64,000 nucleotides of DNA from Sanguibacter sp. HDW7 (GTDB lineage: Bacteria; Actinomycetota; Actinomycetes; Actinomycetales; Cellulomonadaceae). Below are positions 1,317 through 10,891 of the stretch, piece by piece. The stretch spans positions 248,001 through 312,000 of the forward strand of contig NZ_CP049862.1 of the NCBI RefSeq assembly GCF_011300875.1. The letters run 5' to 3'. The notes under the pieces were generated by a model, which worked only from the letters and a program-made list of their open reading frames with translations, made no database searches and had not been told where the DNA came from. The number at the start of each line of letters is the position of its first letter. The first letter of the stretch is position 1. The translations under genes were made by a program, and so were the position numbers.

Positions 1317-1337
1317 CTTGAGTGCAACAGACTCAAC
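1317..1337. promoter_or_regulatory. HAIR element 2 (HspR operator)
   Basis: CTTGAGT (1317-1323), N7, ACTCAAC (1331-1337) lies 62 bp downstream of the first HAIR. The left half is perfect and the right half has one mismatch. It ends 30 bp before the dnaK start, so HspR bound here would overlie the promoter or transcript start. Confidence 0.88.
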
Positions 1338-1366
1338 CGCAGCAGCACAGCATGGAGGCAGCACAC

Positions 1367-3210
<1,844 letters not shown>

Positions 3211-3214
<4 letters not shown>

Positions 3215-3807
3215 CCGACTCCCCGTTCGAGTTCACCGACAAGCGTCGGGTCGACCCCGCGACGGGGCTGCCGCGTGAGGACGCGGCCGCCCCGGCCGGG
3301 GAGCCCGAGGTCGTCGTCCCGGACGACGCCTCCTCGCTCACCGACGGTTCCGTCGCCGGCGCCCCCGTGTCCGACGAGCTCGCCGCTGCGCAGGCGCTCG
3401 CGGCCGAGCGCCTCGACGACCTCCAGCGTGAGCGCGCGTCGTTCACGAACTACCGCAACCGGTCGCTGCGCGACCAGGAGGCGGCTCGGACGCGCGGCAT
3501 GGAGGACGTCCTCGGGGCGCTCCTGCCCGTGCTCGACGACGTCGACCGCGCCCGCCAGGCTGGCGAGCTCGAGGGGCCGTTCGCGGCCATCTCGGACAAG
3601 CTCGACGGCGTTCTCGGCAAGTTCGAGATCGAGCGCTTCGGCGCCGTCGGCGAGGAGTTCGACCCGACGGTGCACGACGCCCTCATGCACGAGGACTCGG
3701 CCGAGGCCACGACGACGACCGTGAAGTTCGTCATCGAGCCCGGCTACCGCATCGGCGAGAAGATCGTCCGCGCGGCGCGCGTCGCCGTCGTCGGACCCCA
3801 GCAGTAA
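3211..3807 (+). CDS. grpE: Nucleotide exchange factor GrpE
   Basis: The protein has 198 residues: an acidic, disordered N-terminus, a coiled-coil helix around [20 protein letters not shown], and the C-terminal beta domain with the GrpE signature ending in [21 protein letters not shown]. GrpE releases ADP from DnaK. The GTG start overlaps the dnaK stop by 4 bp (GTGA), so translation is probably coupled. It is co-transcribed within the HspR-controlled operon. Confidence 0.97.
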
Positions 3808-3881
3808 CCTCTCGGTCGCGGCGGGCCCCACCCGGGCCCGCCGCGACCGCACCCCACGTACAACAGCAAGGAAGGACCGCG

Positions 3882-4865
3882 TTGACCGGACAGGACTGGC
3901 TCGAGAAGGACTTCTACGCCGCGCTCGGCGTCCCGAAGGACGCTGACGGCGCCGCGATCAAGAAGGCGTACCGCAAGCTCGCGCGCCAGTACCACCCGGA
4001 CCAGAACGCCGGCGACCCCAAGGCGGAGGAGCGCTTCAAGGAGGTCGGCGAGGCCTACGCGGTGCTCTCCGACGCCGAGGAGCGCGAGAAGTACGACGCG
4101 ATCCGCGCGATGGGTGGCGGAGCACGCTTCGCCGCGGGCCCCGGCGGCGCGGGTGCGGGCGGCTTCGAGGACATGTTCGGCTCGATGTTCGGCGGCGCCG
4201 GCGGTCGCGGCGGTGGCCGTGCGGGCTTCGGCGGCGGAGGCGGCTTCGAGGACATCCTCGGCGGCCTCTTCAACGGCGGTGGCGGCGGCGCGGGCTTCCG
4301 CGCCGGTCCCCGGCCCCAGCAGGGCGCGGACCTCACGACGTCAGTGACGCTGCCGTTCCGGCAGGCCGTCACGGGCGACGAGGTCGCGCTCGACATCGAG
4401 CACCGCACCATCAAGACACGCATCCCCGCAGGCGTGCGCGACGGCCAGAAGATCCGTCTGCGCGGCAAGGGCCGCCCCGGCACGGGCGGCGGCGCGGCGG
4501 GCGACCTCCTCATCACGGTGAAGGTCGCACCCCACCCGGTGTTCTCGCTCGACGGCCACAACCTGCGCGTCACGCTGCCCGTGACGTTTGACGAGGCCGC
4601 CCTCGGTGCACAGCTCGAGGTTCCGACGCTCGACGGGGCGACGGTCAAGGTCAAGGTCGCGCCCGGCACGCCCTCGGGCCGTGTCCTGCGCGTCAAGGGC
4701 CGTGGCGTCCAGACGGCGAAGGCGACGGGCGACCTGCTCGTCACCGTGCAGGTCGTCGTCCCGCAGAACCTCTCGGCGGACGCGCGAGCGGCCGTCGAGG
4801 CGTTCCGTGACGCGACCGCGGGCACGGATGTCCGCGCCGACCTGATCTCGCGCGCGAGGGACTGA
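3882..4865 (+). CDS. dnaJ: J-domain co-chaperone DnaJ, type II (no zinc finger)
   Basis: The 327 residues begin with a J domain (about 8-75) with the HPD motif in YHPDQN, which stimulates DnaK ATPase. A long Gly/Phe-rich region (about 85-145) and the two C-terminal substrate-binding subdomains follow. There is not one cysteine in the protein, so the CxxCxGxG zinc-finger region of classical DnaJ (about 375-400 aa) is absent; the architecture is that of CbpA or type II J proteins. The TTG start is supported by AAGGAAGGA 7-13 nt upstream. It sits between grpE (74-bp gap) and hspR (6-bp gap). Confidence 0.95.
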   Translation: MTGQDWLEKDFYAALGVPKDADGAAIKKAYRKLARQYHPDQNAGDPKAEERFKEVGEAYAVLSDAEEREKYDAIRAMGGGARFAAGPGGAGAGGFEDMFGSMFGGAGGRGGGRAGFGGGGGFEDILGGLFNGGGGGAGFRAGPRPQQGADLTTSVTLPFRQAVTGDEVALDIEHRTIKTRIPAGVRDGQKIRLRGKGRPGTGGGAAGDLLITVKVAPHPVFSLDGHNLRVTLPVTFDEAALGAQLEVPTLDGATVKVKVAPGTPSGRVLRVKGRGVQTAKATGDLLVTVQVVVPQNLSADARAAVEAFRDATAGTDVRADLISRARD

Positions 4866-4871
4866 CCCGTC

Positions 4872-5276
4872 ATGGACGCCGCCGACGTTCCCGTGCTGCC
4901 GATCTCGCGAGCCGCCGAGCTCGCCGGCATGCACCCGCAGACGCTGCGTCAGTACGACCGCCTCGGGCTCGTCGTCCCCTCCCGCACCGTCGGGCGGGGG
5001 CGCCGCTACAGCGCGCGCGACGTCGAGCGGCTGCGGACCATCCAGCACCTCAGCCAGGACGAGGGCATCAACCTCGCGGGCATCCGCCGCATCCTCCACC
5101 TCGAGGACCAGGTGCGGCTGCTCCGCGGGCGCGTCGAGATGCTCGCGACGGCCCTCGACCCGGGTCACCGCATCTTCACCGCGGACGCGTCGGGCGACAT
5201 CGTCGCGGTGCCGCGCGGCAAGCACGTGCCGCAGGAGCGTGGCGGGACGCTCGTCGTGTGGCGGCCGCGGCGCTGA
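4872..5276 (+). CDS. hspR: MerR-type heat-shock repressor HspR
   Basis: The 134 residues begin with a MerR-like winged helix-turn-helix: PISRAAELAGMHPQTLRQYD followed by the wing RGRRYSARDVERL. The middle motif DEGINLAGIRRILHLE and the hydrophobic heptad region are typical of HspR. It is known to bind HAIR sequences, two of which lie in front of dnaK, and to need DnaK as co-repressor. It is the last gene of the operon, 6 bp after dnaJ. Confidence 0.96.
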   Translation: MDAADVPVLPISRAAELAGMHPQTLRQYDRLGLVVPSRTVGRGRRYSARDVERLRTIQHLSQDEGINLAGIRRILHLEDQVRLLRGRVEMLATALDPGHRIFTADASGDIVAVPRGKHVPQERGGTLVVWRPRR

Positions 5277-5907: not shown

Positions 5908-6675
5908 CTAGAGGCTGAGACTCTCCACGAGGGAGGGGCACAGCGCTGGACTGTCGGGCAGCTGCTCGAGCCAGCTCCGGGCGGGCGACCGCAGCTGCGA
6001 CGCCTGCCCGGAGGCCGTGAACCGTTCAGCCGTCACGTGATCGACGCGCGTCCGCACGGCCGCGACCGTCGCCGGTCCGGTCGCGCGATCGACGAGCATC
6101 GCGAAGAGCCCTGGGCGCAGCTGCGCCGAGGGGTGACCCGTGCCGAGGACGTCGAGGAGGACGGACCCGACGATCGCTCCGGCACGAAACCTCGTGGTGG
6201 TCGACGACCCGTCGAGCCGCAGGTCGAGGACGAGCAGCGCGTGCGCGTCCCACGGCCTGGCGCCGTCGGGGGCGTCGTAGAGCTCCTGCATGCGTGCGAC
6301 GAGGTAGCCGCGCGTGCGCAGTCCCGTGACGGGGTCCGTGCAGCCCGTCTGGGGCTCGACCTCGGTGCCGGTGGCCCAGCCGATCGCGACCTCGCGGACG
6401 AGCTCGGGCTCGGCGGGGAGCCCGAGGGCGCGGAAGAGGCACATGAGGTCGTCGATCGTCTCGGACATTCCGGCGCCGACCGTGGCGCGCGCCTCGCCGA
6501 GCCGTCGGACGGCCTCGGTGGGGTCGGCGCCGCTGACGAAGGCCTCGACGACCGCCTCGGTGGAGGGGTGCGTCCAGTCGCCGGCGTGGCGCCAGACGGT
6601 GTCGAGGGCGCGGGCTCGCCACGCGTCGAGAAGGTGGAGCTCCTCGGCGTGCGCGTGCGGATCCAGATGCGTCAT
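5908..6675 (-). CDS. Degenerate GGDEF-like protein
   Basis: The 255-residue soluble protein has an alpha-helical N-terminal half and a C-terminal part that begins DPVTGLRTRGYLVARMQELY, the usual entry motif of GGDEF domains. Where the active-site GGDEF is expected the sequence reads RPGLFAMLV, so diguanylate cyclase activity is unlikely; a nucleotide-sensing or protein-binding role is possible. It starts at ATG 6675, 87 bp from the divergently oriented sigma-fusion gene, so the two may share a control region. I do not recognise a named family. Confidence 0.6.
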   Translation of the reverse strand: MTHLDPHAHAEELHLLDAWRARALDTVWRHAGDWTHPSTEAVVEAFVSGADPTEAVRRLGEARATVGAGMSETIDDLMCLFRALGLPAEPELVREVAIGWATGTEVEPQTGCTDPVTGLRTRGYLVARMQELYDAPDGARPWDAHALLVLDLRLDGSSTTTRFRAGAIVGSVLLDVLGTGHPSAQLRPGLFAMLVDRATGPATVAAVRTRVDHVTAERFTASGQASQLRSPARSWLEQLPDSPALCPSLVESLSL

Positions 6676-6762
6676 ACCCCATGAGAGGGGCGAGGTTCGC
6701 GGTCATGACGCGAAACCCGTAGCCTGCTTTTGTCAGAGCGGAACATACCGGGGGGTGGTGCC

Positions 6763-9700
6763 GTGAGCGACGACGTCGCGGTCGAGGACCACGTCCTGTC
6801 CGACGCAGAGCTCATCACTGCCGTGCGCAGGGGCGACACGGCCTCGTTCGGTGTGCTCTTCGCGCGGCACTCGGGCGCGGCGACGGCTGTTGCGCGACGA
6901 TATCTGCCGGCGTCCGACGCGGACGACGCGGTCGCGGGAGCCTTCGAGAAGGTCTTGGGCGTCCTGCGGGCGGGCAAGGGCCCGGACGTCGCGTTCCGCG
7001 CGTATCTCTTCACGGTCGTGCGTCGTCGCGCGGTGGAGATGCTCGAGCGCGGTCGGCGTGCGGCGCCGACGGACGACGATCACGTCTTCGAGTCGGCTGT
7101 CGGCCCGCTCGCGTCGTCGGAGGACCCGGCGCTCAAGGGATTCGAGGACAGGACGGTCGCGCGCGCGTTCCAGGCGTTGCCGGAGAGGTGGCGTTCGGTC
7201 CTCTGGTACACGGACATCGAGGGGCTTGCGCCGGCCGACGTCGCGCCGGCGCTCGGCATGACGCCGAACGCCGTGTCGGCGCTCGCGTACCGGGCGCGCG
7301 AGGGGCTGCGGCAGGCGTACCTGCAGGCGCACCTCGCGGACGTGGCGGACGACGACGCGTGCGCGCGCACGAACGCGCAGCTCGGCGCGTACGTGCGTGG
7401 AGGTCTGTCGCGACGTGAGTCGACGCGCGTCGAGGAGCATCTCGAGGACTGCGCACGGTGCCGTGCGGTCGCGCTCGAGCTCGGGGACCTCGCGGCGGGC
7501 ATGCGGGCGACTGTCGCGCCTCTCGTCGTGGGTCTGCTGGGGCTGGCCGCGCTGGGCGGGCTGCCGCTCGTGCTCGCGGGGGCCGGGGCGTCTGCTGCGG
7601 GTTCTGCGGGCAGTGCCGGTGGCTCTGGCACCGACGGACGGTCGACCGCGCGCCAGACGACGGTCGGTGCGGGGGCCGGGCTTGTGGCGGCGGGCTCCGC
7701 CCGGGGCGGCGGCGCCGTGATCGGGGTTGCGGGCGGTGCCGCTGCAGCGGTTGGTGGTGGTGCTGGCGCGGCTGCGGGGGCGAGTGCTGGCGCGGCTGCG
7801 GGTGGCGCTGTAGCCGCGGGCGTCGCGGCGGGCGCCGCGCGCCTCGGGCCGCGCTGGCTCGTCGGGGCGGCTGCGGGCGTCGCGGGACTGCTCGTCGCCG
7901 GCGGCCTCGCGATCGGCGCCGGTTGGTTCGACGACGACGCGCCTCCTGCGGCCGGCCCGTCGACGACGGGTGCGCCGTCCGTACCCGGGGGCGCGGGCGC
8001 GTCGACGCTCCCGAGCGAGGGGACGACGGAGCCCGGGGCGACGACAGGCCCGACGACGACCGCTCCGACGACGACGCCGACGGGTGACGCGAGCGTCCCG
8101 ACGACGCCCACGCAACGGCCGACGGCGGTGCCAACACGCCCGCCGACCGCCGCGCCGACTGCTGAACCGACGTCGCGTCCGACGGACCGACCCACGGCTG
8201 ACCCGACGTCGCGTCCGACGGACCGACCCACGGCTGACCCGACGTCGCGCCCCACCGCCGAACCGACCACGGCACCTCCCACCACCGCACCTCCCACGAC
8301 TCCGCCGATCGCGCCGCCGACGACGGCTCCTCCGACGACGGCACCGCCGACGACGGCACCGCCGACGACCCCGCCCGTCGTCGACCCGCCGGCGGTCGTG
8401 ACGCTCGGGACGAGCACGGTGCTCGTCTCGGGTGGTGCGGGCGTCGTCGACCTCCGGGTCCAGCGCCCGACGGTGCTCACGGCGCCGCTGTCCGTGCGCG
8501 TGACGCTCCCGGCCGCTGCCGAGTGGGACGGTGCCGTGCTCGCCACGTCAGGCGGGGCGGCGTCGGCCTGGGTGTGCGCGGCCGACACCCCGCGGACCGC
8601 GACCTGCACCCTCATGCCTGACGGCGTCGCCCGGCGCGCCGCCGAGCCCGTCGTGTTCCCGTCCGGTGTGCTCCGGTCGATCGAACGTGCGGCGGCGCCC
8701 CGCGTCGCGACGGTCACCGACACTCTCCCCTTCGCCGTGAGGCTCGCGGCGGGCGTCGTCGACCTCGGGTCGCTGCACGTCGAGGTGACGTACGGTGACG
8801 CCGACCCCGTCGCGGACACGGTGTCGCTCGGGCGCGCGCTCGCGGTGGAGCTCGACGCTGACACGGGGCAGGGCACCCTCGTCCTGCGGTCCACGAAGAC
8901 CGCCGGCACCGCAGCCACGACGACTCTCGACGTCACCAACCCCGGTCGTGCCCTCGACGCTGTGGTCGTCGAGATCGAGGTGCCGCAGTCGCTCACCGTC
9001 GTGGGCGAGGGTTGCGTCGGGTCGGCCCAGGCCGACGGGACGACGACTCTCCGGTGCACGTTCCCCACGCTCGCGGAGGGTGGGTCGCGCCCCATCGAGC
9101 TCACCGTCCAGGCGGTCGCGGGCGCGCCGCTCACCCTGACCCGGCTCCCGGTGACGCTCACGGCGACGGTCGGGGCGACGTCGCACGAGGTCGTCTCGGG
9201 CGTCGACGTCCAGATCGACACGGATCGCGCCGCGCTGCGCGACCGGTTCCAGGGCAGCTATCGCGCCTACGAGATCGGCGCGCCGACGATCCACTGCGCC
9301 GCGGGCGCGGGAACGTGCCTGCAGCAGGCCGCCGGCAATGTGAACAACGACGCGGTGAGCAACAGGGTCGTGCTCGACGGACAGGGAGAACGACCGTTCT
9401 CGACCTCGAGCCTCACGCTCCCCGCGGGCGCCCGCGTCGTCGGCGCGTACCTCACGTGGGGGGCGTCGTACGGCGACGGGAGGCGTCCTGCGGTGGTGCC
9501 GGGCGACGCCACGTCGCGTGGGCAGGGCGTGCTCACGGTCCCGGACGGCGTCGCTGTCCCCGTCGCGGGGGAGTCGCGGCTTGCCTCGACCGCCCTGGGC
9601 GGCCTGCTCCTGGGCGGACGAGACTACTTCCAGGCCACGGCGGACGTCACGGACAGTGTGCGTCAGGCTCTCGTGCGCGCATCCGGCGCGCACGACGGCG

Positions 9701-10185
9701 GCTGGTCGTTCGTGCCCAAGGTCGCGCCGGGCACGGACGCCGCCCTCTTCGGCGGCTGGAGCCTCACCGTCGTCGTCGAGGAACCCGGTGCGCCGCACGC
9801 GGACGTGCGGATCTACGACGCCCTCGAGATCCTCTCCGGCTCGACGACGAGCGAGGTGTCGTTCGTGGTGGACGAGGCGTCCGACGTGCGCCTGGGCGTC
9901 ACCGTGTGGGAGGGCGACCGGGGGATCGCCGGCGACAAGGTGACGCTCGACGGTGCGCCCCTCCTGCCCGTGGGAGGGCTCGCGAACCCCGACAACGCGT
10001 TCGACTCGACCGCGACCGGCTTCGCCGTCCCCGGCGTCGCAGGCCCGGTCAACAGCTTTGGCGTCGACGTCCGCGGGTTCGCCCCGGCGACGGTCGCGGC
10101 CGGCACGCGCATGCTCACGTTCGGCACGTCGGGCGACGCGTTCGCGCTCGCGGCCTTCACGCTGACGCTCACGCCGCGCGGCTGA
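6763..10185 (+). CDS. ECF sigma factor fused to anti-sigma zinc finger, membrane segments and surface domain
   Basis: One frame of 1140 residues holds sigma-70 region 2 (about 15-85), region 4 (about 130-190, LPERWRSVLWYTDIEGLAPADVA), and a zinc-binding anti-sigma module with H226-x3-C-x2-C in EEHLEDCARC. Hydrophobic segments follow at about 250-275 and 365-390, with an Ala/Gly-rich stretch between them, then a Pro/Thr-rich stalk with RPTDRPTADPT and APPTT repeats (about 395-545). A large beta-rich extracellular part includes a DUF11-like domain and a C-terminal domain like those in large bacterial surface proteins (AYLTWGASYGDG). GTG 6763 is preferred over an upstream TTG because GGGGGTGG lies just before it. 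It looks like a one-protein transmembrane transcription switch; release of the sigma part by proteolysis is inference. Confidence 0.88.
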   Translation: MSDDVAVEDHVLSDAELITAVRRGDTASFGVLFARHSGAATAVARRYLPASDADDAVAGAFEKVLGVLRAGKGPDVAFRAYLFTVVRRRAVEMLERGRRAAPTDDDHVFESAVGPLASSEDPALKGFEDRTVARAFQALPERWRSVLWYTDIEGLAPADVAPALGMTPNAVSALAYRAREGLRQAYLQAHLADVADDDACARTNAQLGAYVRGGLSRRESTRVEEHLEDCARCRAVALELGDLAAGMRATVAPLVVGLLGLAALGGLPLVLAGAGASAAGSAGSAGGSGTDGRSTARQTTVGAGAGLVAAGSARGGGAVIGVAGGAAAAVGGGAGAAAGASAGAAAGGAVAAGVAAGAARLGPRWLVGAAAGVAGLLVAGGLAIGAGWFDDDAPPAAGPSTTGAPSVPGGAGASTLPSEGTTEPGATTGPTTTAPTTTPTGDASVPTTPTQRPTAVPTRPPTAAPTAEPTSRPTDRPTADPTSRPTDRPTADPTSRPTAEPTTAPPTTAPPTTPPIAPPTTAPPTTAPPTTAPPTTPPVVDPPAVVTLGTSTVLVSGGAGVVDLRVQRPTVLTAPLSVRVTLPAAAEWDGAVLATSGGAASAWVCAADTPRTATCTLMPDGVARRAAEPVVFPSGVLRSIERAAAPRVATVTDTLPFAVRLAAGVVDLGSLHVEVTYGDADPVADTVSLGRALAVELDADTGQGTLVLRSTKTAGTAATTTLDVTNPGRALDAVVVEIEVPQSLTVVGEGCVGSAQADGTTTLRCTFPTLAEGGSRPIELTVQAVAGAPLTLTRLPVTLTATVGATSHEVVSGVDVQIDTDRAALRDRFQGSYRAYEIGAPTIHCAAGAGTCLQQAAGNVNNDAVSNRVVLDGQGERPFSTSSLTLPAGARVVGAYLTWGASYGDGRRPAVVPGDATSRGQGVLTVPDGVAVPVAGESRLASTALGGLLLGGRDYFQATADVTDSVRQALVRASGAHDGGWSFVPKVAPGTDAALFGGWSLTVVVEEPGAPHADVRIYDALEILSGSTTSEVSFVVDEASDVRLGVTVWEGDRGIAGDKVTLDGAPLLPVGGLANPDNAFDSTATGFAVPGVAGPVNSFGVDVRGFAPATVAAGTRMLTFGTSGDAFALAAFTLTLTPRG
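8168..8250 (+). repeat. In-frame 36-bp tandem repeat in stalk
   Basis: A 36-bp unit starting CGACGTCGCGTCCGACGG is present about 2.3 times (8168, 8204, partial at 8240). It encodes SRPTDRPTADPT repeats in the proline/threonine stalk and could vary in copy number. Confidence 0.8.
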
Positions 10186-10252: not shown

Positions 10253-10891
10253 TCAGTCGACGATGCCGTAGAGGCGGTCGCCCGCGTCGCCGAGACCCGG
10301 GTAGATGTAGGCCTTCTCGGTGAGGTGGGAGTCGACGGCGGCGACGACGATCGACACGTCGGCGCGGTCGCCGACGGCGGCCTTGAGGACCTCGATGCCC
10401 TCGGGCGCTGCGAGCAGGCACACGGCTGTGACGTCGCGGGCGCCGCGCTCGAGCACGTAGTTGATCGCGGCGACGAGGGTCGCGCCGGTCGCGAGCATGG
10501 GGTCGAGCAGGAAGACCTGGCGGCCCGTGAGGTCGTCGGGCAGGCGGTTCGCGTACGTGATGGCCTCGAGGGTCGTCTCGTCGCGCTGCATGCCGAGGAA
10601 GCCGACCTCGGCCGTCGGCAGGAGGCGCGTCATGCCCTCGAGCATGCCGAGGCCCGCGCGGAGGATCGGGATGACGATGGGCTGCGGGTCGGCGATCTTC
10701 GTGCCGGTCGTCGGGGCGACGGGCGTCGTGATCGGGACCGTGACGGTGTGCACGTCGCGCGTCGCCTCGTAGGCGAGCAGCGTGACGAGCTCGTCGACCA
10801 GGAGCCTGAAGGTGGGGGAGGCGGTCCGCTCGTCGCGGAGGACGGAGAGCTTGTGGGCCACCAGCGGGTGGTCGGCTACGTGCAGGCGCAT
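10253..10891 (-). CDS. upp: Uracil phosphoribosyltransferase
   Basis: The 212-residue protein converts uracil and PRPP to UMP in pyrimidine salvage. Diagnostic stretches are the N-terminal [13 protein letters not shown], the [13 protein letters not shown] motif, the PRPP loop [16 protein letters not shown], and the C-terminal uracil-binding [15 protein letters not shown]. Length and motif order are typical. It is a single leftward gene that ends at the shared terminator; a uracil/xanthine permease gene at 23557 may feed the same pathway. Confidence 0.98.

What the first reader, a model, noticed from the sequence alone, without database searches (positions are those of the whole stretch)
6763..10185. 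One-polypeptide transmembrane transcription switch: sigma factor, anti-sigma finger, membrane helices and surface receptor
An ECF sigma factor, an H-x3-C-x2-C anti-sigma module, several hydrophobic segments, a 150-residue Pro/Thr stalk and a DUF11-like plus adhesin-like ectodomain are encoded in one frame. ECF sigma factors with C-terminal anti-sigma-like extensions are known in actinobacteria, but a surface ectodomain of nearly 600 residues on the same chain is remarkable. A ligand or surface contact could trigger release of the sigma part.
Basis: partly seen in the sequence, partly recalled or inferred. Interest (0 to 1): 0.75.

Follow-up and report, generated by a model that had tools for sequence, protein, structure and literature searches.

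The report
Membrane-anchored sigma factor with surface receptor
This gene makes one protein that appears to sense something outside the cell and switch on genes inside it; such sigma-receptor fusions were already known, but this branch carries unusual, repeatedly swapped outer domains and comes with a newly found conserved promoter and a small set of likely target genes.

Summary
Window 6763-10185 (+) is one intact 1140-aa ORF: ECF sigma (regions 2 and 4), zinc anti-sigma module (C200-H226-C230-C233, invariant in 45 relatives), hydrophobic segment, Ala/Gly linker, TM helix, Pro/Thr stalk, all-beta ectodomain. It is not a frame error: 195 of 222 genomes of its family match the sigma/anti-sigma part, mostly in frames of 900-1800 aa. 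Such fusions are a known kind (ECF52, SCO4117; ECF48/53), so the "one-polypeptide switch" is not new.

New here: (1) this branch lies apart from the Streptomyces SCO4117-like clade, and ectodomains are swapped on a conserved core (DUF11 + DUF3344-like, CBM5/12; in more distant relatives NPCBM, Ig + ricin lectin, DUF642). (2) A conserved head-to-head partner gene (5908-6675, degenerate GGDEF-like). (3) A two-box promoter, GCGTCATR-N16-STCTCAT, before the partner and before unlinked small LuxR-HTH genes: 73 hits against 1 control hit in 121 family genomes. In one genus it tracks the sigma gene (58/63 genomes with it, 2/19 without).

Best reading: a surface-triggered sigma factor driving a small regulon of tiny regulators. 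Ligand, release by proteolysis and promoter recognition are inferred, not shown.

The parts
6763..10185 (+). Fused ECF sigma / zinc anti-sigma / TM / surface receptor gene, 1140 aa, GTG start
6856..7059 (+). Sigma70 region 2 (residues 32-99)
   Evidence: Pfam E 1.2e-7; confident helices
7156..7302 (+). Sigma70 region 4 (residues 132-180)
   Evidence: Pfam E 6.1e-6; confident helices
7360..7464 (+). Zinc anti-sigma (ZAS) finger, residues 200-234, ligands C200 H226 C230 C233
   Evidence: zf-HC2 E 1.8e-8; ligands invariant in 45 sequences; profile matches anti-sigma ChrR structures
7504..7590 (+). Hydrophobic segment 1 (residues 248-276); probably ZAS helix 4, spanning role unsure
   Evidence: hydropathy; modelled helix 248-264, low confidence
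7591..7851 (+). Ala/Gly-rich low-charge linker (residues 277-363)
   Evidence: 68% Ala+Gly
7855..7929 (+). Likely membrane-spanning helix (residues 365-389), Arg before and Asp-rich after
   Evidence: hydropathy 2.16, flank charges
7930..8385 (+). Pro/Thr-rich stalk (residues 390-541) with tandem repeats
8386..9234 (+). Beta-rich domains incl. DUF11-like part (residues 542-824; DUF11 match 709-805)
   Evidence: AlphaFold mean pLDDT 83; DUF11 E 4.5e-4, below cut-off
9235..10182 (+). C-terminal DUF3344-like domain (residues 825-1140)
   Evidence: family profile; DUF3344 in 10 of 32 relatives
6681..6711 (-). Two-box promoter GCGTCATG-N16-CTCTCAT, ending 5 nt before the partner's start codon
5908..6675 (-). 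Conserved head-to-head partner gene, 255 aa, degenerate GGDEF-like protein
   Evidence: synteny; profile hits GGDEF structures, best E 8.8e-5; no single-sequence Pfam or NCBIfam hit

Best explanation
The gene encodes a membrane-anchored ECF sigma factor that carries its own zinc anti-sigma domain and its own surface receptor. SHOWN by sequence: domain order, intactness, conserved zinc ligands, family-wide conservation, ectodomain turnover, a conserved partner gene, and a promoter motif that co-occurs with the sigma gene. INFERRED: the sigma part is held inactive in the cytoplasm by the adjoining zinc anti-sigma domain; one helix (365-389) crosses the membrane; the Pro/Thr stalk and beta domains project outside; a ligand or surface contact leads to cutting of the stalk and then of the Ala/Gly-rich helix by a site-2 protease, which frees sigma; free sigma recognises GCGTCATR-N16-STCTCAT promoters and transcribes a small regulon made of the degenerate GGDEF-like partner and tiny LuxR-type DNA-binding proteins (two in this genome), which pass the signal on.
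For: Intact ORF and domains. Conservation in 25/25 genera. Invariant zinc ligands. ZAS helices modelled next to sigma-4. Flank charges at segment 2. Two M50 (site-2 protease family) genes in the genome. Partner gene head to head in nearly all f1 and f9 loci and in loci of f35, f39, f46. Motif upstream of the partner, 73 sites against 1 control site in 121 family genomes, 93 against 0 in 82 genomes of one genus. Motif tracks sigma in that genus: 58/63 against 2/19, Fisher 2e-11; 50/55 against 0/10 without fragmented assemblies. Targets are regulators: of 20 second sites, 13 LuxR-HTH, 4 EAL-like, 1 HATPase. Published release model for ECF52 (PMC5826349, PMC8999054).
Against: No experiment. The ligand is unknown, and Foldseek gives only generic Ig-like matches with TM below 0.3. 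If segment 1 also spans the membrane, the ectodomain would sit on the wrong side. The sigma gene's own promoter does not carry the motif; the motif fires away from it. Some genomes with a strong sigma hit lack the exact motif (5 of 63 in g21, and all g7 genomes scanned). The genomes in the co-occurrence test are related, so its p-value is too optimistic. M50 proteases occur in all 14 control genomes, so their presence is weak support.
Confidence: 0.68

Rival explanations
1. Same receptor but without proteolysis: ligand binding or pulling force changes the anti-sigma domain, and sigma works tethered or after a reversible change.
For: The long flexible Ala/Gly linker could let sigma reach RNA polymerase; no protease site was shown; soluble sigma-ZAS fusions without TM exist in relatives (L238, L239, L244, L255).
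Against: The domain order matches membrane anti-sigma factors known to be cut; the fused ECF IutY is released by Prc and RseP (PMC8999054).
Confidence: 0.2
2. The GCGTCATR-N16-STCTCAT promoter is read by another sigma factor or bound by an activator; the fused sigma is only a neighbour and has other targets.
For: Recognition was not tested; the motif is not in front of the sigma gene itself; at least two other ECF-like genes exist in the genome.
Against: Within one genus the motif is nearly absent where the sigma gene is absent; it lies next to the sigma gene in seven families' loci or subsets of them and not beside the Streptomyces-type relatives, whose sigma-4 helix differs; spacing is fixed at 16 in nearly all sites.
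Confidence: 0.15
3. The protein is chiefly a surface adhesin or wall-bound structural protein; the sigma part is vestigial.
For: The ectodomain resembles DUF11-stalk adhesins (PMC9210967), and the same domain occurs in long proteins without sigma.
Against: The sigma and zinc parts are the most conserved parts (50-63% identity across genera) while ectodomains are exchanged (at least 8 changes on the tree).
Confidence: 0.04
4. Frame error or assembly joint that fuses two genes.
For: Sigma and anti-sigma are usually separate genes, and the joint is low-complexity with about 80% GC.
Against: The same fusion is intact in a sister species (93% identity of the N-terminal part) and in 25 genera; codon-position GC is coherent.
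Confidence: 0.01

Closest known systems
ECF52 sigma factors (SCO4117 of Streptomyces coelicolor; PMC5826349)
   Same: ECF sigma + zf-HC2 finger + TM + Pro-rich stretch + extracellular domain in one chain; actinobacteria; proposed release by proteolysis.
   Different: Streptomyces members end in NPCBM (E about 1e-30), form a separate clade on a long branch, have a TetR-type neighbour (as SCO4117 has atrA) and lack the GCGTCAT promoter beside the gene. The window protein ends in DUF11-like and DUF3344-like domains.
ECF53 and ECF48 groups (PMC8999054)
   Same: Fused zinc anti-sigma and TM extension.
   Different: Could not be compared: no reference sequences or group HMMs on hand.
IutY of Pseudomonas putida (ECF243; PMC8999054)
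   Same: Sigma and membrane anti-sigma in one chain; release by regulated intramembrane proteolysis is shown there.
   Different: Gram-negative cell-surface signalling for siderophores (described in the review); no large ectodomain of this kind is described there.
RsgI / SigI of Clostridium thermocellum (PMC10766802, PMC12203970)
   Same: Membrane anti-sigma factor with an outside sensor domain that controls a sigma factor.
   Different: Sigma and anti-sigma are separate proteins, and other families.
Fibrillar adhesins with DUF11 stalks (PMC9210967)
   Same: DUF11/Ig-like stalk with integrin-leg-like models; our Foldseek list also holds 4nen.
   Different: Here the stalk and head are attached to a sigma factor.

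Membership tests
ECF sigma factors | Regions 2 and 4 only, no region 3 | tested here: met
   Pfam r2 and r4_2 above cut-off, TIGR02937 above cut-off; matches solved ECF chains
Class I / zinc anti-sigma (ZAS) domain | Four zinc ligands with H-x3-C-x2-C | tested here: met
   C200 H226 C230 C233, invariant in 45 sequences
ZAS domain | Zinc binding and sigma inhibition in fact | not testable with these tools
   needs protein work
ECF52 (broad layout) | One chain with sigma, zinc finger, TM, Pro-rich stretch, outside domain; actinobacteria | tested here: met
   definition from PMC5826349
ECF52 (SCO4117 type) | Carbohydrate-binding (NPCBM) module at the C-terminus | tested here: not met
   No NPCBM in the window protein; present in Streptomyces relatives
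ECF52 (SCO4117 type) | Same sigma clade as the Streptomyces members | tested here: not met
   Streptomyces clade apart, support 100, branch 1.07 (quick tree); a common larger clade is not excluded
ECF53 / other numbered ECF group | Score against published group HMMs | not tested
   HMMs and the classification paper are not held
DUF11 (PF01345) | Passes the Pfam cut-off | tested here: not met
   20.9 bits against 24.6; several relatives do pass
DUF3344 (PF11824) | Passes the Pfam cut-off | tested here: inconclusive
   The window protein has no hit; 10 of 32 aligned relatives hit at E<=0.1, best 1e-7
GGDEF (partner gene 5908-6675) | Match to a GGDEF family model by the single protein | tested here: not met
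   No Pfam hit for the window protein; family profile matches GGDEF structures at 8.8e-5; 4 of 40 weakly match GGDEF_2

The most novel reading that the evidence does not exclude
A class of one-protein sigma receptors in actinobacteria in which one conserved sigma/anti-sigma core is joined to repeatedly exchanged sensory ectodomains (lectin, CBM, Ig, DUF11/DUF3344-like) and, in this branch, keeps talking to the same tiny regulon through GCGTCATR-N16-STCTCAT: a degenerate GGDEF-like protein and miniature LuxR regulators. The input is swapped while the output is kept.
Probability: 0.5. Interest if true: 0.75.

Novelty: new variant of a known kind. Interest (0 to 1): 0.6.

Why it matters
The targets of fused sigma receptors are almost unknown; only one member (SCO4117) has been studied, and its promoter is unsettled (PMC5826349). 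Here comparative genomics gives a sharp promoter prediction, a short target list and a genus in which sigma and motif are missing together, so the question becomes directly testable. If fast exchange of heads over a fixed core holds, the core is also a natural scaffold for one-gene biosensors.

Tried and rejected
Frame error or assembly joint: rejected by homologs. Two spanning helices (would put the stalk inside): not favoured by flank charges, but three crossings are not excluded. Full-length protein as genome query failed on the server, so pieces were used. PDB sequence searches of the ectodomain found nothing. Foldseek gave only generic Ig-like and beta-sandwich matches, TM below 0.3, so no function is claimed from it. 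The class-wide motif scan with a shortened -10 box was too noisy to count. Of 20 second sites, L223 (15-nt gap) looks like chance and L221 is unclear. Sites read in f19, f46 and f45-like genomes are mixed and were not counted as regulon evidence, apart from noting one adhesin. Classification papers (10.1093/nar/gkaa1229, PMC4518836) are not held.

Full report
OBSERVATION. Window 6763-10185 (+) encodes 1140 residues in one frame. Pfam finds Sigma70_r2, Sigma70_r4_2 and zf-HC2 above cut-off. The zinc ligands C200, H226, C230 and C233 are invariant in 45 aligned relatives, and the profile also matches solved ECF sigma chains and the zinc anti-sigma ChrR. Two segments are clearly hydrophobic (243-276, 365-389). 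They are followed by a 150-residue Pro/Thr stalk with short tandem repeats and an all-beta ectodomain (AlphaFold mean pLDDT 83).

NOT AN ARTEFACT. The sigma/anti-sigma part matches 195 of 222 genomes of the same family and all 25 genera at E<=1e-25. Most matches are 1e-75 or better and lie in frames of 900-1800 aa; some are weaker, paralog-like hits, and some short frames lie at contig ends. The nearest named relative, Flavimobilis rhizosphaerae, is 93% identical over this part, so the host is a Flavimobilis-like actinobacterium. Homologs occur in 119 of 346 genomes drawn from the class, many in long frames.

ANATOMY AND TOPOLOGY. AlphaFold of residues 1-399 gives confident sigma-2, sigma-4 and ZAS helices, with segment 1 (248-264) in the place of the fourth ZAS helix; everything beyond 264 is low confidence. 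Arg before and Asp after segment 2 fit one N-in/C-out crossing. Relatives L055, L069 and L070 show only one segment above threshold. I favour one crossing at 365-389 with segment 1 as ZAS helix 4; other odd numbers of crossings are not excluded.

ECTODOMAIN. Residues 825-1140 form a domain shared with sigma fusions in families f1, f9, f35, f39 and f46 and with long frames of other families, about 2200 aa in some. It is related to DUF3344 (10 of 32 relatives, best 1e-7). Other members carry DUF11, CARDB, CBM5/12 (weak), NPCBM, Ig + ricin-B lectin or DUF642 on the same core. On the sigma tree, presence of the C-terminal domain changes at least 8 times, so heads are gained, lost or exchanged while the core stays. 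Foldseek gives only generic Ig-like stalk matches, in line with published DUF11 stalk models (PMC9210967).

PARTNER AND PROMOTER. A 255-aa gene (5908-6675, minus strand) stands head to head with the sigma gene in nearly all f1 and f9 loci examined and in loci of f35, f39 and f46. Its profile hits GGDEF structures (best 8.8e-5), no single window-protein hit exists, and 4 of 40 members weakly match GGDEF_2: a degenerate GGDEF-like protein. The space between the genes holds a conserved motif. Read towards the partner it is GCGTCATR-N16-STCTCAT, and in Flavimobilis genomes the start codon follows about 36 nt from its first base, as expected for a leaderless promoter. In the window it lies at 6681-6711 on the minus strand.

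REGULON. The strict pattern gives 73 sites in 121 family genomes against 1 with the pattern reversed, and 93 against 0 in the 82 genomes of genus g21. Of 20 second, unlinked sites read, 13 precede a small LuxR-type HTH gene (about 72-86 aa), 4 an EAL-like protein, 1 an HATPase, and 2 are chance or unclear. Pfam confirms GerE for the two LuxR proteins of this genome, and EAL and HATPase for one example each; the rest were assigned by eye from their similarity. All six Flavimobilis genomes have a LuxR site, and this genome has two (C1:10379 and C1:1532395, the latter with a looser -10 box). In family f19 a similar site precedes a surface protein with an ice-binding-like adhesive domain.

DOES THIS SIGMA READ IT? 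In g21, 63 genomes have a strong sigma hit and 19 do not (no hit, or only a paralog-like one). The motif is present in 58 of 63 and in 2 of 19 (Fisher 2e-11); leaving out fragmented assemblies, 50 of 55 against 0 of 10. The genomes are related, so the p-value is too optimistic, but the direction is clear. The motif is missing beside the Streptomyces SCO4117-like genes, whose sigma-4 recognition helix also differs. Recognition itself remains inferred.

MECHANISM. Shown: architecture, conservation, partner, motif, co-occurrence. Inferred: inhibition in cis by the zinc domain, surface exposure, ligand, cleavage (two M50 genes exist, but M50 genes are nearly universal), and transcription of the regulon. 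Work on SCO4117 and the review of non-canonical ECFs propose the same release model (PMC5826349; PMC8999054). The rivals are tethered activation without proteolysis, and a different reader of the promoter.

COMPARISON AND NOVELTY. It works like the ECF52/53 type of fused sigma factor. The broad ECF52 layout is met; the NPCBM domain is not, and a quick tree puts the Streptomyces clade apart. The Streptomyces loci were taken as SCO4117-like because of NPCBM and the TetR-type neighbour, not by name. I file the window protein as a fused zinc-anti-sigma ECF receptor of the ECF52/53 kind, new variant, group number not assigned. The new parts are the exchangeable heads over a fixed core, the degenerate GGDEF-like partner and a sharp promoter and regulon prediction.

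Noticed in passing
G000:C1:10379 (L157/L259) and G000:C1:1532395 (L258), outside the window: Two unlinked 74-76 aa LuxR-type HTH genes of this genome carry the same two-box promoter as the partner gene.
   Followed up: yes
L238, L239, L244, L255: Relatives of 273-317 aa that hold sigma plus the zinc domain but no TM or ectodomain: soluble sigma-anti-sigma fusions.
   Followed up: no
L147, L148: Sigma fusions of family f38 carry Ig domains and a ricin-B lectin as ectodomain.
   Followed up: no
L143: Sigma fusion with a DUF642 ectodomain.
   Followed up: no
L212, L214, L216, L209: EAL-like proteins of about 200 aa behind the same promoter; together with the GGDEF-like partner this hints at degenerate c-di-GMP-type domains used as regulators.
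   Followed up: partly
L113, L118, L124 and other f9 loci; L052, L053: A second conserved element, GTGTGA (and a TGTGATCACCGCA palindrome in L052/L053), lies in the sigma-side upstream region; it resembles a CRP-type site.
   Followed up: no
window about 1322-5276 and 10253-10891: The locus lies between a dnaJ/MerR-type heat-shock cluster and an upp-like gene, an order kept in many relatives (gene names judged from sequence).
   Followed up: partly
L260: In family f19 a related promoter site precedes a secreted protein with a pAdhesive_15 (ice-binding-like adhesive) domain.
   Followed up: no
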